The notes under the pieces were generated by a model. The model made no database searches and had not been told where the DNA came from. It saw only the letters and a list, made by a program, of their open reading frames with translations. From contig JAFXZM010000020.1 of assembly GCA_017541275.1 (NCBI GenBank), positions 49,677 to 113,676 on the forward strand: DNA of 64,000 nucleotides, written 5' to 3'. Position 1 is the stretch's first letter; each line of letters opens with the position of its first letter. A program made the translations under genes and the position numbers. Origin of the DNA: Oscillospiraceae bacterium. GTDB taxonomy: Bacteria > Bacillota > Clostridia > Oscillospirales > Ruminococcaceae. Shown piece by piece: positions 11,979-24,927 of the stretch.

Positions 11979-12800
11979 TTATTCGGCGGTTTCAAATGTG
12001 CCGATCTCGACTGCGGTAATGATGATATCCTCCTTCGGGCGCTGGTCATCCACCTCGCCGACCAGCTCCGCGCCGGTAATCGCTTCGAGAATCTCCCAGC
12101 CCTCGATGAGCTGGCCGAACACCGTGATCTGCTGCGAATAATTCGGGATGCCGCCGTGCTCTATGAACGCTTCGGCTATAATCTGTGCACCCTCGCTATC
12201 GTCCTCGCGCAGTCCGTCCTGAATTTCCTCTGTCATTTCGATCGAATCCGCGACCAGAAACCGGCTGCCGCAGTAGACATCCTGCCGCCCGACCAGCGCC
12301 TTGAAAAAGCTCCGCTCCGTTCCGGTCGTCAATGAGCAGAGTGCGCCGCGGAACGGCCAGAGCTTCGGGGAAAGCTCCTGCGGGACACGCTCCTGTGCCG
12401 TGCCGGCCTTGCCCTGCGGCAGATTGCCCTCCGCATCTGCGCTGCCGCCTGCAAAAAACACATCCTGCTCGACGCGGAAAATATATGTACCGTCATAATA
12501 TCCGCTCTCTGCGAGCTCACAGAAATTTGCCACGGACTTCGGGGCGATTTCCGGGTACAGCTTGAACGTCATATCCCCGGCGGTCGTGTGCATCACGGCA
12601 ATTTTGTCGCCCTTCTGCGGCTCCTCAAACTGAACCAGCTCGATGTCCTCATAGTTGATGACACCCTTGTAGCGCCGCATCATCATGAACCAGAACGAAA
12701 AGGCCAGCGACGACAGCAGCGTGAATACCATGCAGAGCGTCAGGGTTCGGATCAGACGCTTTTTGCCGGGCGTTTTCGGCTTGGGGCCTGTTAATCTCAT
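11979..12800 (-). CDS. Membrane-anchored divergent cyclophilin (273 aa)
   Basis: After a basic N-terminus (KPKTPGKKRLIR), a hydrophobic segment at residues 18-41 anchors the protein. The exterior domain is cyclophilin-like: FCELAESGYYDGTYIFRVEQDVFFAGG and a C-terminal TVFGQLIEGWEILEAI. The canonical FHR is replaced by FRV, and an insertion of about 60 acidic residues (EEIQDGLREDDSEGAQ) separates the last strands. Isomerase activity may be reduced. It has its own promoter and is followed by the lipoprotein cyclophilin. Confidence 0.78.
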   Translation of the reverse strand: MRLTGPKPKTPGKKRLIRTLTLCMVFTLLSSLAFSFWFMMMRRYKGVINYEDIELVQFEEPQKGDKIAVMHTTAGDMTFKLYPEIAPKSVANFCELAESGYYDGTYIFRVEQDVFFAGGSADAEGNLPQGKAGTAQERVPQELSPKLWPFRGALCSLTTGTERSFFKALVGRQDVYCGSRFLVADSIEMTEEIQDGLREDDSEGAQIIAEAFIEHGGIPNYSQQITVFGQLIEGWEILEAITGAELVGEVDDQRPKEDIIITAVEIGTFETAE

Positions 12801-12894: not shown

Positions 12895-12956
12895 GCACCG
12901 CACAAAGCCCGCCGGCTGCTCCGGCGCTGCCTGTGCATCACGGCTTTGTGCGGTGC
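12895..12956. repeat. Long inverted repeat, possible bidirectional terminator
   Basis: Perfect 15-bp arms GCACCGCACAAAGCC and its complement are separated by 32 bp that contain a smaller GCCGG/CCGGC hairpin. It lies just beyond the stop of mazF (12990). There is no T-run, so termination is uncertain. Confidence 0.6.
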
Positions 12957-12989
12957 TCTGCCGGAGAAAACCCGGACTGCATGATGCGC

Positions 12990-13400
12990 TCAGGCAGTCC
13001 CGTACATCACCGGCCGCTCAGGACGGTGCGTGCGGTGCGGGCGCGGGATCAGCCCGAAGCTCACCTCCAGCGCATGATCGACCTCCCGCAGCACCTCGCG
13101 CGGGATCTCCCCCATGCACTCCTTCAGGCGCTGCTTGTCGATCGTCCGGATCTGCTCCAGCAGAATCACGCTGTCCTTCCGCAGCCCGCACCCCGCCGAC
13201 GGCAGCGAAATATGTGTCGGCAGCTTCGCCTTGTCAAGCCGGCTCGTGATTGCCGCCGCGATGACCGTCGGGCTGTACCGGTTGCCCACGTCATTCTGGA
13301 TAATCAGCACAGGCCGGATGCCGCCCTGCTCTGAACCGACGACCGGACTGAGGTCTGCATAATATATTTCTCCGCGCTTCACTGTTATCATCTCAATCAT
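12990..13400 (-). CDS. MazF/PemK-type endoribonuclease toxin without adjacent antitoxin (136 aa)
   Basis: MazF-fold mRNA interferase of the EndoA type. Family landmarks are [19 protein letters not shown] at the N-terminus (catalytic Arg loop G[11 protein letters not shown]) and [16 protein letters not shown]. The start is taken at the ATG at 13400; the ATG at 13391 is possible. A C-terminal tail of about 20 residues ([12 protein letters not shown]) is longer than usual. No MazE-like antitoxin ORF is visible in the 370 bp upstream, so it is an orphan here, as some clostridial EndoA genes are. It abuts the phage head cluster but points away from it. Confidence 0.85.
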
Positions 13401-13770
13401 GCTTCCTTTCGTTTTGCCGGTGCTCCGGCCTCTGCGGATAGTCTGCCCGGTTTCCGGCCGTTTAATCATTCCGCAGGGATTCCTGCTCTATCGTATGTCG
13501 GATGCTGTCAATCCGTGACTGATTCAGGGGATTTCTGCGCCGGCAGGCATGCCGTGATAATACACAAAAAGTCACGCTTCAAATCTGCCAGATTGTGCAA
13601 TGCGCAGAAAATAATTTGTTAAATCATAAATTTTGCACGCAAACGTGCAAAATTTTGCCGATTTGTACCCCGTTATTGAACGGCACCTGTGATACGCTCT
13701 CTCCCGCATCTGCCGTTCGGAATTCAGCCATATGGCAATCAAATTTCTGCGAAAGGCGGTCGATCTTCAC
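13401..13770. other. Gene-free gap before the phage head cluster
   Basis: No supported ORF on either strand. It is AT-richer than its surroundings between 13555 and 13660 and holds the strong inverted repeat at 13628-13655. No convincing sigma-A promoter for the plus-strand phage genes was recognised. Confidence 0.6.
13628..13655. promoter_or_regulatory. Inverted repeat upstream of the phage head genes (operator candidate)
   Basis: AAATTTTGCACG, four-base centre CAAA, then CGTGCAAAATTT: a perfect 12-bp dyad about 115 bp before the terminase small subunit. It could be a repressor-binding site or an RNA hairpin. Location and symmetry are observed; function is inferred. Confidence 0.5.
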
Positions 13771-14322
13771 ATGGACAATTTGCAGGGAAAGCGCAGAGCC
13801 TTCTGCCGCTGGTATCTCGAACGCGGCAATGTCCGGGAGGCTGCGCTCCGCGCGGGCTGTGACCCCGCAAATGCGGAGGAGGAGGGCCTCGCGATGCTCC
13901 GGATGCCCTCCTGCCGCTCGTATCTCTCCCGGCTCGCTGCACAGCCGCCCCTCCCCTTGCAGAGCCTCGTCATCGCCGGGCTCTCGCGTCTCGCGTTCGG
14001 CGCAGCAAATGATGCCGCTAAGCTCGTTTTCGCCGAAAAGTCCCTCACTGATGCGCAGATCGAACAGCTCGACCTGTTCCATGTCACCAGCATCAAGCAG
14101 GACAAGGCCGGCGGCATTGAGATCAGGCTCGCAGACCGGCAGCAGGCAATGGAAAAGCTGCTCGAATGCGCCTGTGCCTCCGATTCTGCCGCCGCTGCCT
14201 CGGCACTGCTCTCCGCGCTCGGTGCAGACAGAGAGGAGGTGACACAATCCTGTGAACCCGATCTCCCTGCAGCCCTTCTCGGACAAGCAGAAGACTGTTC
14301 TGACATGGTGGTGCAGACCTGA
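13771..14322 (+). CDS. Phage terminase small subunit-like protein (183 aa)
   Basis: The N-terminus DNLQGKRRAFCRWYLERGN followed by VREAALRAGC matches the helix-turn-helix DNA-recognition domain of phage small terminases. I chose the ATG at 13771 because it gives the family N-terminus and has AAAGGCGG upstream; an in-frame ATG at 13732 would add 13 residues and lacks a ribosome site. The middle (DLFHVTSIKQDKAGGIEIRLADRQQAMEKLL, split across residues 100-135) resembles the family oligomerisation region. It overlaps the large-subunit gene by 71 bp. It would select DNA for packaging. Confidence 0.8.
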   Translation: MDNLQGKRRAFCRWYLERGNVREAALRAGCDPANAEEEGLAMLRMPSCRSYLSRLAAQPPLPLQSLVIAGLSRLAFGAANDAAKLVFAEKSLTDAQIEQLDLFHVTSIKQDKAGGIEIRLADRQQAMEKLLECACASDSAAAASALLSALGADREEVTQSCEPDLPAALLGQAEDCSDMVVQT

Positions 14323-15511
14323 AACAAAAGGCTATGACGCAATTATCTGCGACGGCGCTGTTCGCTCCGGCAAAACAACCGCGCTCTCCCTCGGCTTCGT
14401 TTTCTGGGCATGTACCTGCTTCTCCGGACAGAGCTTCGCACTCTGCGGCAAAACCGTGACCGGCATCCGGCGCAACCTCGTGCTGCCGCTCTGTCAGCAG
14501 CTCCGCACTCTCGGATTCCATATCGAGGAGCGCGTCAGCCGCTCTTATCTCGATATCTCCTTCGCCGGGCATACAAACCGCTTCTACTGCTTCGGCGGAA
14601 AGGATGAGGGCGCTGCGGCGTTCATTCAGGGCATTACCCTCGCCGGCGTGCTCCTCGATGAAGCTGCCCTGATGCCGCGCTCCTTCGTCGAGCAGGCCGC
14701 CGCCAGATGCTCTGTCCCCGGCGCAAGACTCTGGTTCTCCTGTAACCCCGAACAGCCCTCGCACTGGTTCTACCGCGAGTGGATCTGCAATGCAAAGCAA
14801 AAGCATGCGCTCTATCTCCACTTCACCATGGATGACAACAATGCGCTGACACCTGCCGTGAAGCGCCGCTATGAACGGCTCTATCAGGGCGCGTTCTATG
14901 ACCGCTATGTCAAAGGTATCTGGACAACTGCACAGGGGCTCGTCTATCCGATGTTCCGCCCCGCGCTCCATGTCGGTTCGCCGGACTGCGAACCGGAGCG
15001 GTTCGTGATCTCATGCGATTACGGTACGATGAATCCCGCCTCCTTTGGGTTATGGGGTCTTTGCCGCGGGTGCTGGTTCCGGATCGCTGAATCCTACTAC
15101 GACGCCGGTAAAACCGGTCTGCCGCGCACCGATGAGGAGCACTATGAGGCGCTCTGCGCCCTCGCGGGAAACCGGAAGATCGAACAGGTCGTCGTCGATC
15201 CCTCTGCCGCCAGCTTCATCACCTGCATCCGCAGACACGGAACATTCCGTGCCGTGCCCGCGAAAAATGATGTGCTCGGCGGAATCCGCAGAACCGCCGA
15301 CGCGATCCGGAACGGGGAAATCAAAATCGGGCCGGACTGCGCGGATTCCCTCCGCGAATTCTCCCTCTATGTCTGGGATGCGCATGCCGGACGCGATGCG
15401 CCCAAAAAGGAAAACGATCACGCAATGGACGATATCCGGTACTTCGTTGCGACCGTCATCGACGCGCCCTGCGATGATGCCTTCTTTGCTGCATCCGTTG
15501 CAAGAGGCTGA
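14252..15511 (+). CDS. Phage terminase large subunit (419 aa)
   Basis: DNA-packaging ATPase/nuclease. Walker A GAVRSGKT is near residue 35, Walker B AGVLLDEAAL near residue 133. The RNase H-like nuclease half has candidate metal-binding acids in SCDYGTMNP (about 256), VVVDPSAAS (about 315) and HAMDDIRYF (about 393). All functional motifs appear intact and the length is normal for the family. The start is a GTG at 14252 with GAGGAGG 12 bases upstream. The intact enzyme argues against simple decay of this cluster. Confidence 0.92.
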   Translation: MNPISLQPFSDKQKTVLTWWCRPETKGYDAIICDGAVRSGKTTALSLGFVFWACTCFSGQSFALCGKTVTGIRRNLVLPLCQQLRTLGFHIEERVSRSYLDISFAGHTNRFYCFGGKDEGAAAFIQGITLAGVLLDEAALMPRSFVEQAAARCSVPGARLWFSCNPEQPSHWFYREWICNAKQKHALYLHFTMDDNNALTPAVKRRYERLYQGAFYDRYVKGIWTTAQGLVYPMFRPALHVGSPDCEPERFVISCDYGTMNPASFGLWGLCRGCWFRIAESYYDAGKTGLPRTDEEHYEALCALAGNRKIEQVVVDPSAASFITCIRRHGTFRAVPAKNDVLGGIRRTADAIRNGEIKIGPDCADSLREFSLYVWDAHAGRDAPKKENDHAMDDIRYFVATVIDAPCDDAFFAASVARG

Positions 15512-15572
15512 CCGCCGCCCTCCCTCATCCCTCCGCCCCCCCAAAAACAACAATTCAAAAGGTGGTGTTTGA

Positions 15573-16748
15573 TTGGCTTTCCGTTTTTTGCACAAGAAGC
15601 CTGTGCTGCGCACCGAAGCGCCGCTGCTGCTTACTGCTCCCCGTGCCGCGCCGGTGCAGTCGCTCTCTCTTGTGCCCCCGCCGCAGCCCTCTCCTGCCGA
15701 ATACCGGCTCTATGATGCCCTGCGCTTTCATGTGCCCGTCATTGATGCGGCCATTCTGAAAATCGTTCGGCTCACAGGCGGCTTCCGCCTCGTTTCCGAT
15801 GACCCGGACGCGCAGATGCGGCTCGACCGCTTCTCTGAGAATGTTCCCGTCAATGCCTGCGGCCTGTCGCTTCAGCTTTTCGCCGACCAGATGCTCGACA
15901 GCCTCCTGACCTACGGAAATGCTGCCGGTGAGCTGCTCACCGACGATGACGGCGCTCCCGCGGGCCTCCTGACCGTCCGCCCCGAATGCCTCAGCATCCG
16001 CGCTGATTCCCCCGGCAAATGCGCTTTCTTTGCCGTCGATCAGAAGGATGGCTCTGAGCATCCCCTCCGGCATCCGGAACACCTGCTCTTTGCTGCGCTC
16101 AATCCCCCCGCAGGCAGCACCTTCGGTGTCTCTCTCCTGCGCGGTCTGCCCGCCGTTTCACAGATCCTGCTGCGCATCTTCAACTGCATCGGGCTCAATT
16201 ACGACAGAGCCGGCAATATCCGCTATGCCGTGACCTACCGCCCCGACAGCGGCAGCGCCGCCTATACCAAAGAGCATGTGCAGAAAATCGCTGAGGCATG
16301 GCAGGAGGGCATCAATGCCTCAAAATTCGGCGAGCCGCAGGACTTCATTACCGTCGGCGACGTCGATATCAAGGTCATCGGCGCGGACAATCAGCTCTTT
16401 GATACCAATGTCCCCGTCCGGCAGCTCCTTGAACAGATCGTCGCAAAGCTCTCCATCCCGCCCTTCCTGCTCGGCCTCTCATGGTCCTCGACTGAGCGGA
16501 TGTCCAAGCAGCAGGCCGATATCCTGACCTCCGAGCTCGAATACTTCCGCCGCGTGCTCTCTCCCCTCCTGCGGAAAATCGGCTGCGCGGTGCTCCGCGC
16601 CGAGGGCCTCGATGCCTGTGTCCGCGTCGAGTGGAGCAATATCAATCTTCAGGATGAGACCGAGCTCGCCGACGCCCGCCTCAAAAATGCGCAGGCAGAG
16701 GAAATCGAACTGCGTAATAAAGCAGTTTCGCTGCGCGATGATTTGTAA
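15573..16748 (+). CDS. Phage portal protein (391 aa)
   Basis: Portal of the HK97/SPP1-like group: the dodecameric ring through which DNA enters the capsid. Recognisable parts are LLTYGNAAGELL near residue 112, a glycine-rich stretch STFGVSLLRGLP near 180, and KLSIPPFLLGLSW followed by MSKQQADILTSELEYF near 300. The start is a TTG at 15573 preceded by AAAGGTGG. The C-terminus ends early at AVSLRDDL, where related portals often continue; the last codons coincide with a degenerate copy of the repeat described at 21040. Confidence 0.88.
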   Translation: MAFRFLHKKPVLRTEAPLLLTAPRAAPVQSLSLVPPPQPSPAEYRLYDALRFHVPVIDAAILKIVRLTGGFRLVSDDPDAQMRLDRFSENVPVNACGLSLQLFADQMLDSLLTYGNAAGELLTDDDGAPAGLLTVRPECLSIRADSPGKCAFFAVDQKDGSEHPLRHPEHLLFAALNPPAGSTFGVSLLRGLPAVSQILLRIFNCIGLNYDRAGNIRYAVTYRPDSGSAAYTKEHVQKIAEAWQEGINASKFGEPQDFITVGDVDIKVIGADNQLFDTNVPVRQLLEQIVAKLSIPPFLLGLSWSSTERMSKQQADILTSELEYFRRVLSPLLRKIGCAVLRAEGLDACVRVEWSNINLQDETELADARLKNAQAEEIELRNKAVSLRDDL

Positions 16749-16760
16749 TTGGTAACGGGC
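16725..16760 (+). repeat. Degenerate copy of the TCGCTGCGCGATGATT repeat
   Basis: TCGCTGCGCGATGATT at 16728-16743 is identical to the core of the 53-bp repeats at 21040 and 22518; GGTAACGGG follows. It spans the portal stop codon. A weaker copy (CCGCTGCGCAATGATC then GTAACGGG) lies at 17901-17928, right after the capsid gene. Confidence 0.55.
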
Positions 16761-16928
16761 ACTGCCCCAATCCGCTGATAAGCAGTATATTTGCACGTAT
16801 CTTCTGTCATTCTGCAATAACGGCATCCCAAACAGCCATGCGTGCCGGAGCAGATGGCGGTCTGCACTGCGAATTCTGCTTCAATATGCGCTGATGCGCC
16901 AAAATTCATACCGAAAAGGAGATTTGTT

Positions 16929-17897
16929 ATGTACGATTCCGTGAAACTCGAAAAAGGCATGTATCACCTCGCAAACCGCACCTTCGCTCAGGCTCTGGAG
17001 GAGGCTGACCCCTCTGCACAGTATGCCGGTACGCCGCTTCAGTCGCTCGATGCCTTTGAACGTCAGCTCAAGCGCTTCGATATCCGCGTTTCCGGCGAAA
17101 ACTGCGACCGCGTCGAAAAGTTCTTTACGACAACGGAAAGCGCCGTGCTGTTCCCCGAATTCGTCCGCAGGGCAATCAAAAGCGGCATGGAGGATTCCCT
17201 GCTCCCGGAGCTGACCGCAGCCTCCGCTGCCGTCAATGCGACCGCCTGCAAGGGCTTCTCCGTCGATGAGACCGACGGCGCCTACAGCACCGTCACCGCG
17301 GAGGGCGCTGTCCTCAAAAAGACTGCGATCACAGAGGGCGACAGCTTCGCGCTCGACAAGTTCGGCCGCATCATCACTGCCTCCTATGAGACCGTCAGAC
17401 AGCAGCGCATTGATGTGTTCGCCGTCATGCTCCGTGCCGTCGGCAAAAAGCTCGCCGGCGCAATCGCAGCCAAGGCTCTGACTGTCATCAAAAATGCTGC
17501 TGATTCCTTCAATTCCGCCGGCTCTGCAATCGCTTATGCCGACCTCGCTGCCCTCTACGGCAGATTTACCGACTACGACCTCACCGCCGTCATCGCCTCC
17601 CCGGCCAATGCTGCGGCAATCCTCGCGATGACCGAAATGCGTGACCGCTCCCTCGGTTCGGACGGCGAGATCCGGCTGCCCTTCGGCGCTAAGCTGCTGA
17701 AGGATGCTTCGATCGGCGACAGCACCGTCATCGGCATCTCCAGAGACTTCGCACTCGCTGCCTATACCGGCTCCGATGTGCTGCTCGAATCCGACCGGCT
17801 CATTGACTGCCAGCTCGACCGCATTGCCGTGTCTGTCCGCATCGGCTTCCAGCCGCTGATGTCCGGCGCTGCCGCCGTACTCAATATCGTGAGCTGA
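16929..17897 (+). CDS. Major capsid protein, HK97-fold type (322 aa)
   Basis: Size, position after the portal, and the pattern KLEKGMYHLANRTFAQAL ... VRRAIKSGMEDSLLP ... LIDCQLDRIAVSVRIGFQ suggest a capsid protein of the HK97 fold; the closing beta strand ending in GAAAVLNIVS is typical. The start ATG at 16929 has AAAAGGAG upstream. There is no obvious N-terminal delta domain, so scaffolding would be separate or dispensable. Assignment is by pattern and context. Confidence 0.75.
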   Translation: MYDSVKLEKGMYHLANRTFAQALEEADPSAQYAGTPLQSLDAFERQLKRFDIRVSGENCDRVEKFFTTTESAVLFPEFVRRAIKSGMEDSLLPELTAASAAVNATACKGFSVDETDGAYSTVTAEGAVLKKTAITEGDSFALDKFGRIITASYETVRQQRIDVFAVMLRAVGKKLAGAIAAKALTVIKNAADSFNSAGSAIAYADLAALYGRFTDYDLTAVIASPANAAAILAMTEMRDRSLGSDGEIRLPFGAKLLKDASIGDSTVIGISRDFALAAYTGSDVLLESDRLIDCQLDRIAVSVRIGFQPLMSGAAAVLNIVS

Positions 17898-18017
17898 ACG
17901 GTACCGCTGCGCAATGATCCGTAACGGGACGATATCCTGTTTCCTGTGAAATCAGACAAACGGATGCAGGGGGACTGCCATTGCCGCCCTGCATCCGCAC
18001 AAAAAAGGAGGTTTTCT

Positions 18018-18920
18018 ATGCCCGATCAGAATGAACTGCTGACGCTCCTCAACCGCTTTACCAAGCGTGAGCATTCGCTTGATGAGGTCTATCTCTTTGA
18101 TCTCATCCTCTGCGACAATGAGATCGACCGCGACGGCGACTGCTTCTCGGCTGCTGCACTCGAACAGCTCCGCGACCGCTTCGTCGGCGTGACCGGTATC
18201 TTCGACCATAACCCGCGCTGCGGCAACCAGACCGCACGCATCTTCCGCACCGAGCTCTGCTCTGACCCCGGACGCAAAACCAAAACCGGTCAGGTCTACC
18301 GCTTTCTCCGCGCAAATGCCTATATGGTGCGCACCGAAAGCAATGCCGACCTCATCAGGGAAATCGACGCCGGCATCAAAAAGGAGGTCAGCATCTCCTG
18401 CGCGGTCGGCAAGCAGATCTGCTCGGTCTGCGGTGCCAATAAGCTCCGGAAGCCCTGCTCCCATATCAAGGGCAGAATCTACAGCGGTACCAGATGCTAT
18501 CATACGCTCGATGATATCACCGATGTGTATGAGTGGAGCTTCGTCGCCGTGCCCGCTCAGAAGGCTGCGGGCGTCACAAAAACCTGCGGCGGCGCCTGCG
18601 ATCCCGAAAAGGAAGCCATGCAGTCGGCACTCGATGCCGCCGGTCAGCTCCTCGACCGCCTGACCGAGGAGCTCCGCAGGGACGTTGTTCGGCTCTGCTA
18701 CCGCGGCGGCGAAAATGCCTGCGCTAAGGCACTCGCCGACTCAACCGTGCATATGGATGCCGATGCCCTGCTCGCGCTCCGGGATTCCCTCCGCGTCGGG
18801 CTCGCGGCTGCAAATGCGCCGGCTCAGCTCATGCCCGGACAGGCCGGCCAAAAGCCGCCCGTGCAGGCCTTCCGCCTCGCTCCTGCGCACCGATCGGAGG
18901 TGCCGTATGCAAAAAGCTAA
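18018..18920 (+). CDS. Prohead protease-like protein (300 aa)
   Basis: The first 200 residues have the layout of phage prohead serine proteases: NEIDRDGDCFS, a candidate catalytic His in GIFDHNPRCG near residue 60, and a candidate Ser in KKEVSISCAVG near residue 130. Unusually, a Cys-rich insertion (CSVCGANKLRKPC and a later His/Cys pair) could bind zinc. About 90 helical residues follow. It lies after the capsid gene, whereas most phages place the protease before it. Start ATG 18018 has AAAGGAGG. It could mature the capsid. Confidence 0.65.
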   Translation: MPDQNELLTLLNRFTKREHSLDEVYLFDLILCDNEIDRDGDCFSAAALEQLRDRFVGVTGIFDHNPRCGNQTARIFRTELCSDPGRKTKTGQVYRFLRANAYMVRTESNADLIREIDAGIKKEVSISCAVGKQICSVCGANKLRKPCSHIKGRIYSGTRCYHTLDDITDVYEWSFVAVPAQKAAGVTKTCGGACDPEKEAMQSALDAAGQLLDRLTEELRRDVVRLCYRGGENACAKALADSTVHMDADALLALRDSLRVGLAAANAPAQLMPGQAGQKPPVQAFRLAPAHRSEVPYAKS

Positions 18921-19284
18921 GGTCTCTCAGCTCTTTCTCCTGTTTACCGGCTTGCAGCATGCCTGCGCCTTTGACGATCTCATCGACAGCGCGATGATGC
19001 AGGTCAGGTCCATGCTGCGGGAGGATGCTGATGACAGCGATGTCCGGCTCTGCTACCTCGCCGCCGCTGCCGCAAATTTGCAGTACAGGCAGATGATCGC
19101 CGCAAGAACCGTCTGCTCGCCGACCTATGCGGGCGACAGCGCCGTGCAGCACAGCGATACCGCCGCATGTGCGCTCGCCGAACGGCTCGCTGCCGAATAC
19201 CGTGCTGCCGCTGCACCGCTGCTCCGGGATGATGCATTCGTATTCGGTACGGCCGCTTCGCTCTGCGCGGGAGAATGCCCGTGA
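18907..19284 (+). CDS. Small helical phage protein, probable head-tail connector (125 aa)
   Basis: An all-helical Ala-rich protein with DDLIDSAMMQVRSML near residue 22 and CYLAAAAANLQYRQMIAA near 50, resembling small gp6-like connector proteins that sit after capsid genes. It overlaps the protease-like gene by 14 bp and its ATG follows GGAGG by six bases. No catalytic motif. Call by size, helical pattern and position. Confidence 0.55.
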   Translation: MQKAKVSQLFLLFTGLQHACAFDDLIDSAMMQVRSMLREDADDSDVRLCYLAAAAANLQYRQMIAARTVCSPTYAGDSAVQHSDTAACALAERLAAEYRAAAAPLLRDDAFVFGTAASLCAGECP

Positions 19285-19706
19285 ACGGCGCCGCGACGCT
19301 TGTGCAGCGTACCGTGACGCTGCTCCGGAATGCCGGGCTCACTGCCTTCGCGGAATTTGACCGCGGCGGTCTGCCGCTGCCCGATGCGCGCTGCTATACT
19401 ACGGTCGGTGCCGTGAAAACTGAGCTCGCTGCGGTCATCCCGCTGACGGAGCGCGATGCCGTTCCGCTCATCGCAGAGCTGCGTGTCCGGCTCCATGCAC
19501 CCGCCGGTCAGGACACCGGTGCGCTCAATGCGCTCCGCGAAAAGGCGCTGGCGGCTCTCGCTGCATCCGGTGATCCGCCCGTCACGCTGCTGTACGAAAC
19601 CGGATGCTCCTATCAGAAGCAGACTGACCGCCTGTCAGCCGACCTGCATGTGCAGATCGCTGCACTGCTGATGCTCGACAGAGAGGAGGAACCGGATGAC
19701 ACTTGA
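19281..19706 (+). CDS. Phage protein, possible tail-completion protein (141 aa)
   Basis: I start at the GTG at 19281: it overlaps the previous stop by 4 bp (GTGA) and has GGGAG seven bases upstream, while the ATG at 19275 sits directly on that site. The C-terminal YQKQTDRLSADLHVQIAALL resembles the conserved end of small tail terminator or joining proteins. No confident family match by eye. It overlaps the next gene by 11 bp. Confidence 0.55.
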   Translation: MNGAATLVQRTVTLLRNAGLTAFAEFDRGGLPLPDARCYTTVGAVKTELAAVIPLTERDAVPLIAELRVRLHAPAGQDTGALNALREKALAALAASGDPPVTLLYETGCSYQKQTDRLSADLHVQIAALLMLDREEEPDDT

Positions 19707-20076
19707 TACCAATCTTCCGGAGCAGACAATCCCGTTCGGAAACCTCAGCATTCCGGTATCGGCTCACACGCTCAGAGCCGAATGCCCGATGCGCGCAAGA
19801 GTGCTCTGCGACGGCACTGTGCAGCACTATCTGCTCACCGATGCAGACTGCACCCTGACCCTCTCCGGCTCCATGCCCTTTTCCGACGGCATGGCGCTCT
19901 GCCGGGCGCTCCGGACTGCCATGCTGAACCACACTGCGGAGCGTTTTGTCTTTGCCGGGACGCTGTTCACCGGAATGCAGGTCATCGGGCTTGCCTACAG
20001 CTCCGCAAAGCATAAAATGCTCACCGAATATACCGTGACCCTGCACGGCACCATGACGGAGGCGTTCAATCCATGA
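19696..20076 (+). CDS. Small phage structural protein, function unclear (126 aa)
   Basis: Mostly beta-strand pattern (TIPFGNLSIPVSAHTLRAE, FVFAGTLFTGMQVIGLAY) with a short central helix. The ATG follows GAGGAGG by seven bases. It overlaps both neighbours (11 bp and an ATGA overlap). Its place between joining proteins and the hub suggests a baseplate-proximal or tube-capping role; this is inference from order only. Confidence 0.55.
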   Translation: MTLDTNLPEQTIPFGNLSIPVSAHTLRAECPMRARVLCDGTVQHYLLTDADCTLTLSGSMPFSDGMALCRALRTAMLNHTAERFVFAGTLFTGMQVIGLAYSSAKHKMLTEYTVTLHGTMTEAFNP

Positions 20077-20996
20077 ATCCTGTTCTCAGATGCTTCTACC
20101 GCAGCGGCCCCGAACGTACCTTCACCGAATGTATCCGGTTTACACTCGTCCGCGACCGCTATCAGCCCTTTGCCGTGCTGCATGTGCAGATGCACACCGA
20201 CAGCCATGCGGATGTGCCGGTCAGAGTGCAGTTTTCGCTCGGCGGCAGGCTCCTCCATGACGGCGTGGTCGTCAAATGCGACTGCGCCCTCGAACAGGGA
20301 CAGCATATCCTGCGGCTCACCGCCAGAAGCTATACCTCCCTGCTCGTGCAGAACCAGCTTGTCCCCGGCATCCATACCGATGTGACACTCGCCTCCCTTT
20401 TAGAAACCTATGCGCTGCCGCATATCACCTATCAGCCGGATGTCGAGATGATCCGCTATATCTATGTCAAGGACAATGCCTCCATGTGGGACACCGTCAC
20501 GGCCTATAATTTCAAGCTCAACTCCGGATTTCCTTATATCCGCGTGCCGAATCTGCTCTGCGTGCTGCCGCAGACCGGCACTGTTCCTGCGGCCATTCCG
20601 GAGCAGTCAATCCTGAAGCTCTCTGACGGCGGCGAGCTCTCCGGTATGCTCAGCCGCATCGACATGGCAAATATGGTCGGAGAATACGGCACCTATACCC
20701 GTTCCAATCCCCTTGCTCCGCTCTACGGCATCGTCCGCGTCAAGCAGATTCTCCTCGACCGGCAGTATGTCTATGAGCCGGACGATGCCCTGCGCTTCCG
20801 CATCGCGCTCGGAAACCGCAGGCTCCGGAGCAAAACGGTCTCCTATGCCGGCTACTGCGGTGAGGATGCCGAAGACCTTGTGTCCGTCGGCTCCCGCTTC
20901 ACGGCCCGTGTCTCACGCATCGTCCTCACCGGCGATCAGGGCGGCCTGACCACTTCCGATACCTTCTACTTCGATGACTTCTGTAATGTGCAGTAA
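20073..20996 (+). CDS. Tail hub/baseplate protein, XkdQ-like (307 aa)
   Basis: Resembles gp27/XkdQ-type tail hub proteins: an N-terminal beta barrel, then SLLETYALPHITYQPD, then NASMWDTVTAYNFKLNSGFPYI near residue 135, which is the family hallmark (a W-x-x-V-x-x-Y segment), and late beta strands ending DTFYFDDF. Last gene of the head cluster. No LysM peptidoglycan module is present. A hub without any tail-tube, sheath or tape-measure gene nearby is unusual. Confidence 0.65.
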   Translation: MNPVLRCFYRSGPERTFTECIRFTLVRDRYQPFAVLHVQMHTDSHADVPVRVQFSLGGRLLHDGVVVKCDCALEQGQHILRLTARSYTSLLVQNQLVPGIHTDVTLASLLETYALPHITYQPDVEMIRYIYVKDNASMWDTVTAYNFKLNSGFPYIRVPNLLCVLPQTGTVPAAIPEQSILKLSDGGELSGMLSRIDMANMVGEYGTYTRSNPLAPLYGIVRVKQILLDRQYVYEPDDALRFRIALGNRRLRSKTVSYAGYCGEDAEDLVSVGSRFTARVSRIVLTGDQGGLTTSDTFYFDDFCNVQ

Positions 20997-21002
20997 CAAC
21001 AG

Positions 21003-21029
21003 GGGGCGCCGCTTGCTGTGCGGCGCCCC
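21003..21029 (+). terminator. GC-rich hairpin after the phage cluster
   Basis: A 10-bp stem (GGGGCGCCGC with its complement) and a 7-base loop, 7 bp after the hub stop codon. There is no T-run, so it may stabilise the RNA 3' end rather than terminate. Confidence 0.55.
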
Positions 21030-21039
21030 ACAGTCTGTC

Positions 21040-21092
21040 GAAAAAGGTATCGCTGCGCGATGATTGATAATGGGCTCTCGCTCGCTTCGCTA
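21040..21092 (+). repeat. 53-bp inverted repeat, left copy
   Basis: A perfect 53-bp match in inverted orientation to 22518-22570. The pair encloses 1.4 kb with two minus-strand membrane-protein genes. Inside is the small dyad ATCGC-TGC-GCGAT. Degenerate relatives lie at 16725 and 17901. Confidence 0.85.
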
Positions 21093-21113
21093 ACCCACCA
21101 AATTGACAAGCTG

Positions 21114-21158
21114 ACGCCCCCGCAGACCTTCACAGTCTGCGGGGGCGTATTGTTTTAT
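21114..21158 (+). terminator. Bidirectional-type hairpin terminator
   Basis: A 14-bp perfect stem (ACGCCCCCGCAGAC with its complement), 7-base loop, then ATTGTTTTATT on the plus strand. It separates the phage genes from the convergent membrane-protein genes. Confidence 0.85.
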
Positions 21159-21177
21159 TCGGATACATCAGCAGAGT

Positions 21178-21795
21178 TTACTGCTGCGGCGGCTGACTGC
21201 CGTTATTCTGCGGGGGCTGCGGAGGCTGCGCGGGCTGCTGTGCATTCTGCGCACCGCCGCCGAAGCGGTCTGCGAGGCTGGTGGTAAGCCCAAGCTGCTG
21301 CTGTTTGGCATCGAGCTTTGCCTGCCTTCTGTCGTGGATTTTCTGACCGGCGGATTGTCCGGCTTTCGATTCCGCAATCTTTTTTGCCGCGACAGCCGCG
21401 CCCTTGCCGAGCGTCAGTGCAATGAAGGTTGTCGCAGTCTGAACGGCCACAAACAGCACCAGCGTCAGGCCGAAGGTTATCATGAATATTCCGAAGCCGC
21501 TCTCGAACCATGTCGGATGCGCTTTCCAGAGCTTGAAATAGCCAACGAGCAGATAAATCACCCACAGGCTGGCTGCGATATAAAATCCGACGCTGCCGTA
21601 TGTGAACTTTTCAAACGCCTCCCAGCCGTGATACTCGCCGAATACATCCTCCAGCTTATATGCACGCACCAGCGCATTGCGGATGACATTATTCAGAAAG
21701 ACCGCCAGCAGCAGGCCTCCGATGCCGCCGATCCAGAGTGCCGAGCTGAAATCCGGTGAGCCGTTTGCGGTCTGTAAAGCTGCCGTTAATAACAT
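21178..21795 (-). CDS. Membrane protein with Gln/Pro-rich tail (205 aa)
   Basis: Three hydrophobic segments: about residues 20-42 (GGIGGLLLAVFLNNVI), 75-95 (VGFYIAASLWVIYLLV) and 108-135 (FGIFMITFGLTLVLFVAV). A basic helix (KIAESKAGQSAGQKIHDRRQAK) and a Gln/Pro/Asn-rich tail follow. I use the ATG at 21795 (GGAAGG upstream); an ATG at 21813 would overlap the previous stop (ATGA) but lacks a ribosome site. It forms a pair with 21810-22379. Not recognised. Confidence 0.7.
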   Translation of the reverse strand: MLLTAALQTANGSPDFSSALWIGGIGGLLLAVFLNNVIRNALVRAYKLEDVFGEYHGWEAFEKFTYGSVGFYIAASLWVIYLLVGYFKLWKAHPTWFESGFGIFMITFGLTLVLFVAVQTATTFIALTLGKGAAVAAKKIAESKAGQSAGQKIHDRRQAKLDAKQQQLGLTTSLADRFGGGAQNAQQPAQPPQPPQNNGSQPPQQ

Positions 21796-21809
21796 ATGAT
21801 CCCTTCCTT

Positions 21810-22379
21810 TCATCCGGCTTCGACATTGACCTGTGCGGTGTTGTCGAATTCAAAGAACATTTTTTCGAGCATCGTCAGCAGAATATTCATGGAAAGAACA
21901 TCAATCGGATCATTGGAATTCACGTTTTCATTGACTTCATTGATCGACTTGTAGCTGGTGATGCGAAAACGGTAGGTGGTTTTCTCCGGGTCTTTGTCAT
22001 AAGCCTCCTGCATTTCGGCAAGCTCAGCCTCAAAGACCGGATTCAGCGACGAATCTCCGGTTCGCAGGCAGAAGTAGTAGCCGGCAGAGGTCGTTTTTGC
22101 TGAGAGCTGCGACGGAATTGCGCCGCGGTTGTACAGATGACACTGCACAAGATTGAAATCCAGCTTTTTTATCAGCTCCGTGACCTCCTCGCGCGTGACC
22201 TTGCGGCAGGTCAGGTATTCCGAATTCCGGTAGAATTTCTTGTCGCGCTCGATGATCTGTCCGCTTTCCAACAGTGCTTTCTTGGCCTTCCTTCTGGCAA
22301 TCTCCGTCAAGACCGCGACGACGACGATCAGGCCGACAACGCCGATGACGATTAACCAGATAATCGTGCTGTCACTCAT
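21810..22379 (-). CDS. Single-pass membrane protein, unknown function (189 aa)
   Basis: One N-terminal membrane helix (residues 6-28, IIWLIVIGVVGLIVVVAVL), then a basic stretch (ARRKAKKALLESG) and a cytoplasmic mixed alpha/beta domain of about 150 residues. The ATG at 22379 follows AGGAGGAAG. The promoter at 22440 drives it and the next gene. Both genes and the promoter lie inside the 53-bp inverted repeats. No family recognised. Confidence 0.72.
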   Translation of the reverse strand: MSDSTIIWLIVIGVVGLIVVVAVLTEIARRKAKKALLESGQIIERDKKFYRNSEYLTCRKVTREEVTELIKKLDFNLVQCHLYNRGAIPSQLSAKTTSAGYYFCLRTGDSSLNPVFEAELAEMQEAYDKDPEKTTYRFRITSYKSINEVNENVNSNDPIDVLSMNILLTMLEKMFFEFDNTAQVNVEAG

Positions 22380-22439
22380 AATACTTCCTCCTCTTTTTTC
22401 GTTGATGCAGAAGCCGTCAATCCTGCGGTTTCTGTCAAT

Positions 22440-22468
22440 ATTGTAGCACATTTCCTGCTGTTTGTCAC
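22440..22468 (-). promoter_or_regulatory. Promoter of the inverted-repeat-flanked pair
   Basis: On the minus strand GTGACA (22463-22468), 17 bp, TACAAT (22440-22445), about 60 bp before the ATG at 22379. Confidence 0.6.
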
Positions 22469-22517
22469 CACACAAAAGGGTAGTTTTGATGCTGCCGCCG
22501 TGCTGTGTGCAAACTCA

Positions 22518-22570
22518 TAGCGAAGCGAGCGAGAGCCCATTATCAATCATCGCGCAGCGATACCTTTTTC
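22518..22570 (-). repeat. 53-bp inverted repeat, right copy
   Basis: Perfect reverse complement of 21040-21092. It is followed within 8 bp by copy B of the dispersed repeat. No target-site duplication could be seen outside the pair. Confidence 0.85.
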
Positions 22571-22577
22571 TACAAGC

Positions 22578-22684
22578 TGGGGGAGAGAAAACAAGAGTTT
22601 TCTCTCCCCCCCAATTCAAAATAATCAGTTCCGCTCTTGTACAAACTGATATTTTAACAACAAATCCGCGATTTCGCCGCTCCC
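22578..22684. repeat. Interspersed intergenic repeat, copy B
   Basis: Same element as 4467-4572: 14-bp GGGGGAGAGAAAAC hairpin with AAGA loop (22579-22610), then the shared CCGCTCTTGTACA and AATCCGCGATTT blocks. With the 53-bp repeat it fills most of the 22380-22815 intergenic stretch. Confidence 0.75.
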
Positions 22685-22700
22685 AAAGCCCTTCCGGCTC

Positions 22701-22729
22701 TTGCATTCTTCTCGAAAATCTGCTATAAT
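22701..22729 (+). promoter_or_regulatory. glnN promoter
   Basis: TTGCAT (22701-22706), 17 bp, TATAAT (22724-22729). The leader is about 80 nt and shows no terminator. A perfect AAAGGAGG lies about 34 nt before the ATG, too far for that start. Confidence 0.75.
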
Positions 22730-22815
22730 GTAGTATATAATGAAATGCGCTGCTGTATCTGCGGCGCCGGAAAGGAGGCGTGCATTCCCCCAAAAACGGA
22801 ATGTGCGGTTAAGTT

Positions 22816-24927
22816 ATGCAGACAATCGAAAATATCAGCGCACCGGATACTTATTTCGGCTGCAATGTATTCAATGAGCAGGTGATGCGCAGCACCCTCC
22901 CCAAAAAGGTTTATGAAGCGGTCATGAGCACCAGAAGAATGGGTACGCCGCTCCCGCGCGAGGCTGCGGATGTCGTGGCAGCAGCCATGAAGGACTGGGC
23001 CGTTTCGCACGGCTGCACGCACTTTACACACTGGTTCCAGCCGATGACCGGTGTCACCGCAGAAAAGCATGATGCATTTCTGACGCCCGCCGGCAGCGGT
23101 GTGATTCTCGATTTCTCCGGAAAGGAGCTTATCAAGGGCGAGCCGGATGCTTCCTCATTCCCCTCCGGCGGTCTGCGCGCGACCTTTGAGGCGCGCGGCT
23201 ATACCGCATGGGACCCGACCTCTGATGCCTTTATCAAGGACAGAACCCTCTGCATCCCGACCGGCTTTGTTTCCTACACCGGCGAGGTGCTGGACAAGAA
23301 AACGCCGCTGCTGCGCTCGATGGAAGCGGTCAGCCGCGCCTGCGTGCGGATGCTGCGGCTGTTCGGCAATACAACGGTTCACCGTGTGATGACCGCTGTG
23401 GGCCCGGAGCAGGAGTATTTCCTGATCGACAAGGAAAGCTATGATGCGCGTGAGGACCTCATCCTGACCGGCAGAACCCTGTTCGGCGCAATGCCCCCAA
23501 GGGGCGAGGAAATGGATGACCACTACTTCGGCAACCTGACTCAGCGCGTTTCCGATTTCATGCGCGAGCTGGATGCGGAGCTCTGGAAGCTCGGCATTTA
23601 TGCGAAAACCGAGCACAATGAGGTCGCGCCCGCGCAGCATGAGCTTGCACCCGTCTATACGACCTCCAACATCGCGGCAGACCACAACCAGCTCACCATG
23701 GAACTGATGAAAAAGACGGCCCTCAAGCACGGGTTGGTCTGCCTGCTGCACGAAAAGCCCTTTGCCGGCATCAGCGGCTCAGGCAAGCACAACAACTGGT
23801 CTGTTTCGACCGATGACGGCCAGAATCTTCTCGATCCGGGCGACACGCCGCAGGATAATATGATCTTCCTGCTGACGCTCTGCGCAATCCTCAAGGGCGT
23901 CAAGGAATATGCGCCGCTGCTGCGCCTGTCCTCCGCCTCCGCCGGCAACGACTGCCGTCTCGGCGGAAACGAAGCCCCGCCGACCGTCATTTCCGTGTTC
24001 ATCGGCGATGATCTGCAAAAAGTGCTCGACGCGATCGAGCAGGGCAAGCCGCTCGACGGCACCGGCAAGGAGCGCTTCAATCTCGGCGTCGATGCGATTC
24101 CCCAGTTCCGCAAGGATTCAACCGACCGGAACCGCACGTCGCCTATGGCTTTCACCGGAAACAAATTTGAATTCCGCATGCTCGGCTCGGCCGATTCGAT
24201 CTCCTGCTTCAATTTCGTGATGAACACGATCTTTGCAACGGAAATCACGCAGTTCTGCGAGGAGCTCGAACAGGCTGCGGACTTCAAAACGGCACTGCAT
24301 GAGCTGCTCGTGCGCTCAATCCGCGAAAACAAGGACATCATCTTCAACGGCAACGGCTACGGCGATGAGTGGTTTGCAGAGTGCAGACGCCGCAATCTGC
24401 CCGATTATCCCTCGACCGTCGAGGCGCTGATGCAGTATGACCGCGACGAGTTCGTGAAAATTTTTGAGGCACAGAATGTTCTGAGCCGCGCTGAGATCAC
24501 CTCCCGCAAGGAGATCCTGCTGGACAACTACAGCAAGACCGTCGGCATCGAGGCACGCACCATGCTGGATATGGCGCGCAAGAAGATTATGCCTGTCTGC
24601 ATTTCCTATACCAAGCATCTCTGTGAGGCGATCGACCTGAAGCACAGAATGCCGGCCATGCTCAGCATCAGCCCGGCCGTCGAGGATGCGCTGGCTTCTC
24701 AGATCAGCGATCTGACCTCCGGCCTCTATGAAGCAATCGAGGATTTGCGCGATGCGCTCTATGTCGCCTCCCATATCGCAGAAGTCACGGAGCGCGCCGC
24801 TGCATTCCGCAGGGATGTCGTTCCGGCAATGGAGCGTCTGCGCGCGACCGCAGATGCGCTGGAGGTGCTGATTCCGCAGGATCAGTGGCCGTTCCCGGCA
24901 TACTCCGAGATTCTCTACAATATCTGA
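22816..24927 (+). CDS. glnN: Glutamine synthetase type III
   Basis: Makes glutamine from glutamate, ammonium and ATP; the cytoplasmic high-affinity ammonium assimilation enzyme. At 703 residues it has the large GSIII length. Landmarks are GPEQEYFLIDKESYDA near residue 196, EVAPAQHELAPVY near 270, the ATP-binding GSGKHNNWSVST near 321, and FRMLGSADS near 455. The ATG at 22816 is the first possible start, since an in-frame TAA lies six bases upstream, but it has only a weak ribosome site. Own promoter; mutY follows by 6 bp. Confidence 0.96.
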   Translation: MQTIENISAPDTYFGCNVFNEQVMRSTLPKKVYEAVMSTRRMGTPLPREAADVVAAAMKDWAVSHGCTHFTHWFQPMTGVTAEKHDAFLTPAGSGVILDFSGKELIKGEPDASSFPSGGLRATFEARGYTAWDPTSDAFIKDRTLCIPTGFVSYTGEVLDKKTPLLRSMEAVSRACVRMLRLFGNTTVHRVMTAVGPEQEYFLIDKESYDAREDLILTGRTLFGAMPPRGEEMDDHYFGNLTQRVSDFMRELDAELWKLGIYAKTEHNEVAPAQHELAPVYTTSNIAADHNQLTMELMKKTALKHGLVCLLHEKPFAGISGSGKHNNWSVSTDDGQNLLDPGDTPQDNMIFLLTLCAILKGVKEYAPLLRLSSASAGNDCRLGGNEAPPTVISVFIGDDLQKVLDAIEQGKPLDGTGKERFNLGVDAIPQFRKDSTDRNRTSPMAFTGNKFEFRMLGSADSISCFNFVMNTIFATEITQFCEELEQAADFKTALHELLVRSIRENKDIIFNGNGYGDEWFAECRRRNLPDYPSTVEALMQYDRDEFVKIFEAQNVLSRAEITSRKEILLDNYSKTVGIEARTMLDMARKKIMPVCISYTKHLCEAIDLKHRMPAMLSISPAVEDALASQISDLTSGLYEAIEDLRDALYVASHIAEVTERAAAFRRDVVPAMERLRATADALEVLIPQDQWPFPAYSEILYNI

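What the first reader, a model, noticed from the sequence alone, without database searches (positions are those of the whole stretch)
13771..20996. Compact, intact phage head and packaging cluster without any other phage functions
Nine plus-strand genes with mostly overlapping ends encode TerS, TerL, portal, capsid, a protease-like protein, three small joining proteins and a tail hub. TerL keeps all ATPase and nuclease motifs and no frame is broken. No integrase, repressor, replication, lysis, tail-tube, sheath or tape-measure gene is visible within 15 kb. An ordinary decayed prophage would be expected to show broken genes. A domesticated DNA-packaging particle similar in principle to a gene transfer agent would explain intact heads; recent deletion from a prophage is the alternative.
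Basis: partly seen in the sequence, partly recalled or inferred. Interest (0 to 1): 0.85.

Follow-up and report, generated by a model that had tools for sequence, protein, structure and literature searches.

The report
Inherited phage-derived DNA-packaging gene cluster
A bacterium related to gut Ruminococcus carries, as an inherited part of its chromosome, a compact set of virus-derived genes that looks like a working machine for packing DNA into particles, perhaps to pass pieces of the bacterium's own DNA to its relatives.

Summary
Nine plus-strand genes (13,771-20,996) encode TerS, TerL, portal, capsid, a protease-like protein, three small joining proteins and a Mu gp44-type hub, among chromosomal genes. 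This is not a decaying prophage: TerL is found in 27 of 30 genus genomes, uninterrupted in 26; the cluster tree shares 11 of 17 splits with a host gene; selection is purifying. The capsid family occurs in 116 of 125 genomes of the R. flavefaciens genus and matches no named phage.

A palindromic element before TerS recurs in relatives. In each of 11 genomes where further copies were fetched, one copy precedes a second, distant operon of fibre-like genes; holin and/or endolysin was seen in 6 of these. That is the split layout of a gene transfer agent (GTA).

The cluster is not homologous to FpGTA I of Faecalibacterium, the only GTA operon my searches found for this family. It is a candidate for the unexplained 4.6-kb packaging of R. 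callidus (PMC12946183), but its presence there was not shown. Packaging and transfer are inferred. The second operon was not found in the 31% of the own genome that I read.

The parts
13628..13655 (+). Palindromic upstream element AAATTTTGCACG[CAAA]CGTGCAAAATTT, 115 bp before TerS (operator, activator site or hairpin)
   Evidence: a relaxed form was found upstream in 20 of 21 genus loci, three of them poorly symmetric (L051, L060, L065); no shuffled control was run for the relaxed form
13672..13684 (+). Block at similar spacing after the palindrome, also seen before the second operon of relatives; -10-like by inference
   Evidence: Listing; function inferred
13771..14322 (+). Terminase small subunit (TerS)
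   Evidence: PF03592 E 2.7e-13; start chosen by a ribosome-binding-site-like stretch shared with relatives
14252..15511 (+). Terminase large subunit (TerL), key ATPase and nuclease residues intact
   Evidence: profile matches TerL structures 5oe8 and 5oea
15573..16748 (+). Portal protein
   Evidence: phrog_30703 E 2.3e-123
16929..17897 (+). Major capsid protein (322 aa)
   Evidence: phrog_3922 E 5.3e-60, PF25209; alignment A5
18018..18920 (+). Prohead-protease-like protein (300 aa)
   Evidence: phrog_16951 E 1.1e-90, family of unknown function; protease role recalled, not tested
18907..19284 (+). Small protein, probable head-tail connector
   Evidence: Position; conserved family; role inferred
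19275..19706 (+). Small protein, possible tail terminator or neck protein
   Evidence: Position; conserved family; role inferred
19696..20076 (+). Tail-tube / tube-initiator-fold protein
   Evidence: AlphaFold model pLDDT 92.2; Foldseek to diffocin baseplate and RcGTA neck
20073..20996 (+). Baseplate/tail hub of the Mu gp44 / T4 gp27 type
   Evidence: AlphaFold model pLDDT 95.7; Foldseek E 2.7e-17 to 1.5e-16 for the best four

Best explanation
The cluster is the head-and-packaging operon of a domesticated, vertically inherited, GTA-like element shared by the window's genus, by Ruminococcus proper and by other genera of the order. Shown here: intact genes, conserved order, largely host-like inheritance, purifying selection, host-like codon use, no integration or replication gene among those scanned, and in 11 relatives a second distant operon of fibre-like genes, with holin and/or endolysin in 6, behind the same palindromic element. 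Inferred mechanism: one regulator acting at the palindrome switches on both operons in a fraction of cells. TerS, TerL and portal fill a small capsid with fragments of the host chromosome. The connector proteins, the tube-initiator-like protein and the hub form a short tail. Fibre proteins from the second operon give host recognition, and holin plus endolysin lyse the producer and release particles that pass host DNA to siblings.
For: TerL in 27 of 30 genus genomes, uninterrupted in 26; 12 of 13 of the good ones. All nine ORFs at least 70% of median length in 19 of 21 genus loci and 44 of 70 other fetched loci. Capsid in 116 of 125 genomes of the R. flavefaciens genus and 71 of 394 genomes of the order, 43 of 169 genera, two of these hits weak. 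Cluster tree shares 11 of 17 splits with aspS; Mantel r 0.78, 0 of 5000 permutations reach it. dN/dS window against nearest relative: TerL 0.12, portal 0.17, murA 0.06; capsid 0.01 in the closest pair. Capsid matches no named phage, only five unannotated faecal contigs. Strict palindrome pattern in 15 of 30 genus genomes, reversed control 0, 0 in 10 Mb of simulated sequence. In 12 genomes one site lies 564-626 bp before the TerL match (my reckoning). In 11 of the 11 genomes whose further sites were fetched, one heads the fibre-like operon. Holin PF05105 in 2 of 2 proteins scanned; CHAP plus PG_binding_1 in 4 of 4 endolysins scanned. GTA-like packaging is reported in this family, including R. 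callidus (PMC12946183, sections read).
Against: No particle, packaged DNA or transfer was observed. The second operon was not found in 0.63 of 2.04 Mb of the own genome, and two places where relatives carry it lack it there; that genome is about 76% complete. The 15 genus genomes without the strict pattern were not examined for the second operon. Endolysin was recognised in only 5 of 11 second operons. Of three fibre-like proteins scanned, one matches a minor-tail PHROG (5.9e-05) and two match nothing below 0.04; two VCGN-type proteins match nothing convincing. Four supported conflicts between cluster and host trees. In several genus loci with 5 kb or more read upstream (for example L053, L054) the MazF/MurA neighbours are missing, so the place is not fixed. 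In three genomes most palindrome copies head dispersed repeats instead. Sheath, tube and tape-measure genes elsewhere in these genomes were not searched for. A PBSX-like particle that never delivers its DNA would leave much the same genomic signature.
Confidence: 0.75

Rival explanations
1. A PBSX-like element: a domesticated particle that packs host DNA in the head but acts as a killing agent or lysis device and does not deliver DNA to recipients.
For: Anaerotruncus massiliensis (L125) has the same head module with genes that read as sheath, tube and baseplate, and its genome has two Baseplate_J matches. Lysis genes are co-organised in some relatives.
Against: Baseplate_J absent in 9 of 9 genus genomes and in FD-1 and G145. 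No sheath-like ORF was seen on reading the window's translations, but no sheath profile was run on whole genomes. TerL and portal are under strong selection, which a pure killing device would need less.
Confidence: 0.15
2. A capsid used for something other than DNA transfer, such as a storage or protection shell or a satellite's packaging module helped by phages.
For: No tape measure is seen in the cluster, and 10 of 70 other loci show the order portal-protease-capsid-g6 with no recognised hub.
Against: Terminase, portal, hub and a co-organised fibre-like/holin/endolysin operon fit release and delivery of DNA. No integrase or replication gene of a satellite was seen among the genes scanned.
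Confidence: 0.06
3. A recent deletion remnant of an ordinary prophage.
For: Phage-type gene order; terminase relatives in named phages at about 48% identity.
Against: Near-universal in two genera, mostly host-like tree, purifying selection, host-like codon use, no att-like repeats in the 10 kb searched.
Confidence: 0.02
4. The palindrome is a terminator-like or mobile repeat, and its place before the two operons says nothing about common control.
For: It folds as a hairpin followed by T-runs. In four genomes copies head a dispersed 150-180-nt unit.
Against: One copy precedes TerL in 12 genomes and another precedes the same second operon in 11 of 11 examined; half-sites differ between species but stay symmetric, and a downstream block keeps its spacing.
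Confidence: 0.2

Closest known systems
FpGTA (FpGTA I and II) of Faecalibacterium, PMC12946183
   Same: GTA-like element of the same bacterial family; a head/packaging operon and a separate operon with fibre, receptor-binding, holin and endolysin genes; no tail visible by microscopy; no replication genes (outline, passages and sections 9, 10 and 26 read).
   Different: Not homologous: profiles of the nine window-cluster families against eight fetched loci of six genomes gave only distant TerL matches (E 8e-8 to 5e-5, seven loci) and none for capsid, portal, protease-like or hub. FpGTA I has ten ORFs in 10.5 kb; here nine in 7.2 kb. The six genomes are assigned to Faecalibacterium by a recalled 16S signature of one of them.
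PBSX of Bacillus subtilis and PBSX-like elements
   Same: Domesticated, chromosomal, head module plus hub (recalled); the A. massiliensis relative has genes that read as contractile-tail genes.
   Different: Baseplate_J is absent from the genus genomes tested; no sheath- or tape-measure-like ORF was seen in the cluster.
RcGTA-type GTAs of Alphaproteobacteria
   Same: Vertically inherited, selected, genes in separate loci (recalled). The gene 8 model resembles an RcGTA neck protein by fold.
   Different: Different bacterial class; long-tail genes of RcGTA (recalled) are absent from this cluster. Sequence homology of the capsid to RcGTA was not tested.
Deep-sea thermophilic phage D6E and other named phages (TerL only)
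   Same: D6E TerL is 48% identical; the TerL profile matches solved large terminases 5oe8/5oea (that these are D6E's is recalled).
   Different: The capsid has no match in any named phage genome at E 1e-5.

Membership tests
Gene transfer agent (general) | Intact tailed-phage-derived capsid, portal and terminase genes | tested here: met
Gene transfer agent (general) | Inherited vertically with the host rather than mobile | tested here: met
   four supported tree conflicts and changes of chromosomal place noted
Gene transfer agent (general) | Maintained by purifying selection | tested here: met
Gene transfer agent (general) | No integration or replication genes; structural and lysis genes spread over separate loci | tested here: inconclusive
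   Second operon in 11 of 11 relatives examined, lysis genes in 6 of them; not found in the 31% of the own genome read
Gene transfer agent (general) | Packages mostly random host DNA, in pieces too small for its own genes | not testable with these tools
   Needs particles; packaging reported for R. callidus (4.6 kb) without a named operon in PMC12946183
Gene transfer agent (general) | Delivers the DNA to recipient cells | not testable with these tools
   Needs a transfer assay
FpGTA | Homologous capsid and portal | tested here: not met
   loci assigned to Faecalibacterium by recalled 16S signature
PBSX-like elements | J-type baseplate | tested here: not met
   Baseplate_J absent in 9 of 9 genus genomes, own one included
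PBSX-like elements | Contractile sheath and tape measure | tested here: inconclusive
   Not seen on reading the window; no profile search of whole genomes
Ordinary or decaying prophage | Sporadic presence, own integrase/replication genes or broken genes | tested here: not met

The most novel reading that the evidence does not exclude
This is an ancient GTA family of the order, unrelated to FpGTA. It is nearly universal in Ruminococcus and in the window's genus, has its own palindrome-controlled regulon (head operon, fibre/holin/endolysin operon, and perhaps the dispersed ~160-nt units and an AAA_25 ATPase), and is the machine behind the unexplained 4.6-kb chromosomal packaging of Ruminococcus callidus. 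It would have arisen from a contractile-tailed ancestor by loss of sheath, tube and tape measure.
Probability: 0.45. Interest if true: 0.92.

Novelty: new variant of a known kind. Interest (0 to 1): 0.82.

Why it matters
GTAs are well described only in Alphaproteobacteria and a few other groups. My searches found one published operon for gut Ruminococcaceae, and packaging was reported there in species for which no operon was named. A second, unrelated system that is close to core in Ruminococcus would give a built-in route for gene exchange among common gut and rumen bacteria. It also provides genes to delete and an upstream element to test, so that the open question of who makes the host-DNA particles in the gut becomes directly testable.

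Tried and rejected
Considered and rejected: decaying prophage or recent deletion; membership in FpGTA; J-type contractile particle in the genus. A LexA-type box before TerS: no CGAACN4GTTCG in 95 upstream regions, relaxed forms in 7. Genes conserved directly after the hub in the genus: none formed a shared phage set. Rfam gave nothing for the window and only a SAM riboswitch in five other loci. PADLOC gave no hit for seven proteins. PDB sequence profiles gave nothing for the hub, one weak hit for the capsid (0.02), weak ones for gene 8 (0.42-0.56) and unrelated ones for gene 7. The first 16S probe matched 3 of 247 genomes, from three genera, none of them Faecalibacterium by my reading of the 16S; one of these genera carries a PBSX-looking element unrelated to the cluster. 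My notes call the gene at 11,979 'alr'; it is a cyclophilin-type isomerase.
Full report
WHAT IS THERE. The window lies in an unnamed draft genome (G000, 2.04 Mb, 66 contigs, 75.6% complete). Nine plus-strand genes run from 13,771 to 20,996 with mostly overlapping ends. Profile searches identify TerS, TerL, portal and capsid well above chance and place the fifth gene in a PHROG of unknown function that I read as a protease by its look; the last four have no informative sequence match. Two of those were modelled. The last gene is a confident baseplate-hub fold (pLDDT 95.7; Foldseek E 2.7e-17 to a tail protein, 1.5e-16 to Mu gp44). The eighth is a tail-tube or tube-initiator fold (pLDDT 92.2; best hits diffocin baseplate, RcGTA neck and phage baseplate proteins, E 4e-5 to 3e-4). 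Key ATPase and nuclease residues of TerL are invariant in the 14 sequences aligned, and its profile matches solved large terminases 5oe8/5oea. Both flanks are chromosomal (ten proteins scanned). No tRNA and no Rfam family in the window, and no flanking att-like repeat within 12,900-23,000. GC3 is like that of four neighbouring genes, overall GC slightly higher than the window.

HOW WIDESPREAD. Window TerL finds a relative in 27 of 30 genomes of the genus, own one included, and in 12 of the 13 best; in 26 the frame is uninterrupted, in G017 it holds a stop; apart from the own genome the best matches are 61-87% identical. At family level 95 of 148 genomes have a TerL match, but the weakest of these look like ordinary phage terminases. 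The capsid is the better marker: in the phage collection it matches only five unannotated 'Bacteriophage sp.' contigs from human faeces. One of these, MT835508, reads as a bacterial chromosome fragment with ribosomal-protein, rnf and ribonucleotide-reductase-like genes beside the cluster (by reading translations). A capsid profile finds 116 of 125 genomes of the genus of R. flavefaciens FD-1, nearly always one copy, and 71 of 394 genomes of the order, 43 of 169 genera, two of these hits weak.

CONSERVATION. Twenty genus loci were fetched. By tblastn and profiles the order TerS-TerL-portal-capsid-protease-like-g6-g7-g8-hub is regular in all that reach far enough; one search lists L053 with two genes swapped because over-long ORFs were used. 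With the window, 19 of 21 loci hold all nine ORFs at 70% of median length or more; L051 ends at its contig edge and L053 has a shortened hub frame. MazF lies upstream in 7 of the 20 and MurA in 7; others, some with 5 kb or more read upstream, lack them, so the chromosomal place has changed in part of the genus. Of 70 other loci, 44 hold all nine; ten have the order portal-protease-capsid-g6 and no recognised hub; eight or so are cut by contig ends. A. massiliensis (L125) has extra genes before its hub that read as sheath, tube and baseplate; Baseplate_J is found in that genome but in none of nine genus genomes, FD-1 or G145. Sheath, tube and tape measure were not searched by profile in whole genomes.

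INHERITANCE AND SELECTION. For 20 genomes the cluster tree shares 11 of 17 splits with an aspS tree, and pairwise distances correlate (r 0.78; 0 of 5000 permutations as high). Four pairs of splits supported above 0.95 conflict, around G004, G008 and the G018/G023 pair, so some exchange is possible. Nei-Gojobori dN/dS of window against L051 is 0.12 for TerL, 0.17 for portal and 0.34 for TerS (murA 0.06); in the closest pair (L057/L059) capsid is 0.01 and TerL 0.05. Genes 7 and 8 evolve fast (median 0.72 and 0.75 over less diverged pairs, where saturation may inflate the ratio; 0.30 in the closest pair).

THE SHARED UPSTREAM ELEMENT AND THE SECOND OPERON. A perfect 12-bp-arm palindrome ends 115 bp before TerS (13,628-13,655). 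A relaxed form is present upstream in 20 of 21 genus loci, three of them poorly symmetric, without a shuffled control for that relaxed count. The strict pattern GTTGYACN6GTRCAAC occurs in 15 of 30 genus genomes, 1 to 13 sites each and 76 in all, with none for the reversed control; 10 Mb of simulated sequence gave none. In 12 genomes a site lies 564-626 bp before the TerL match. Of the other 64 sites 40, from 11 genomes, were fetched; 24 were not, among them all of G019, G025 and G026 and the further ones of G023. In each of the 11 genomes one site lies just before the same set of genes: two related proteins with a VCGNSDYTVRF-like stretch, in most a fibre-like protein between them, and a fourth protein (the printed output was cut in the middle, one search covers all 11). 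Downstream, an endolysin was recognised in 5 of 11, four of them confirmed as CHAP plus PG_binding_1 by Pfam, and a PF05105 holin in the two scanned (L292, L295), so 6 of 11 show at least one lysis gene. One of three fibre-like proteins scanned matches a minor-tail PHROG (L292); the receptor-binding reading of the rest is recalled resemblance. In G009 the two operons are about 218 kb apart on one contig. Other sites precede an AAA_25 ATPase (three genomes, two scanned), a DUF6291 gene (one) and, in four genomes, a dispersed 150-180-nt unit; three loci with that unit gave no Rfam match for it. The own genome's TTTGCAC variant does not fit the strict pattern, so it gave no site.

NEGATIVE RESULT FOR THE OWN GENOME. 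I read 40 stretches (0.63 Mb, 31%) of G000. The second operon was not among them. The M16 peptidase and the CBS-domain gene that neighbour it in relatives were found, without the operon beside them. A relative of the AAA_25 ATPase is present (50% identity) but without the palindrome. The genome is incomplete, so this is open.

AGAINST WHAT IS KNOWN. The closest published system is FpGTA of Faecalibacterium (PMC12946183; outline, passages and sections 9, 10 and 26 read). Six genomes of one genus, assigned to Faecalibacterium by the recalled 16S signature of one of them, carry a conserved operon of about the described size and order. Profiles of the nine window-cluster families find in it only distant TerL similarity. 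The same paper reports GTA-like packaging in R. callidus (4.6 kb), Gemmiger, CAG-115 and others for which it names no operon. Whether R. callidus carries this cluster could not be checked by name. In the held paper library 'gene transfer agent' with Ruminococcaceae occurs in three papers and with Oscillospirales in none (other searches); of the three, two mention the term once each by the listing and were not read. Most subscription papers and preprints are outside this library.

MECHANISM. Shown: a selected, inherited packaging gene set, and in relatives a second operon of fibre-like and lysis genes behind the same element. Inferred: common regulation, packaging of host DNA, a short tail, lysis of the producer and delivery to kin. 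The PBSX-like alternative, particles without delivery, cannot be separated from sequence alone.

Noticed in passing
L290, L291, L302, L306-L310, L312, L314, L315, L318, L320 (alignment A6): In four genomes of the genus many extra palindrome copies head a dispersed 150-180-nt unit with conserved 5' and 3' ends; no Rfam match for it in the three such loci searched (L291, L309, L318). Possibly a small-RNA or mobile repeat family.
   Followed up: partly
L285, L293, L316; relative at L358:872-1789 in the window's own genome: AAA_25-type ATPase genes directly behind palindrome copies in three genomes; the copy in the own genome lacks the palindrome.
   Followed up: partly
L286:4347-5006: A DUF6291 gene (phrog_15768) directly behind a palindrome copy in G007.
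   Followed up: no
window 21,027-21,092 and 22,518-22,583: A 66-nt inverted repeat (94% complementary) flanks two minus-strand genes just after the cluster; a related 28-nt stretch also occurs at 16,725 and 17,901 inside the cluster.
   Followed up: partly
L173, L174, L175: Another genus of the family (g94) carries an element that looks PBSX-like by gene sizes and order (no profile search), with most proteins above 90% identical between two of three genomes; unrelated to the window cluster.
   Followed up: partly
L177 (MT835508) and L178-L180, L182: Contigs deposited as 'Bacteriophage sp.' from human faeces, Mexico, carry this cluster; MT835508 reads as a chromosome fragment with ribosomal genes. 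They may come from the particle-enriched virome study PMC8361208 (passages read; accession link not confirmed).
   Followed up: partly
L125 15,089-20,836: A. massiliensis carries the same head module with what read as sheath, tube, hub and baseplate genes but no evident tape-measure gene, a possible ancestral or alternative tail.
   Followed up: partly
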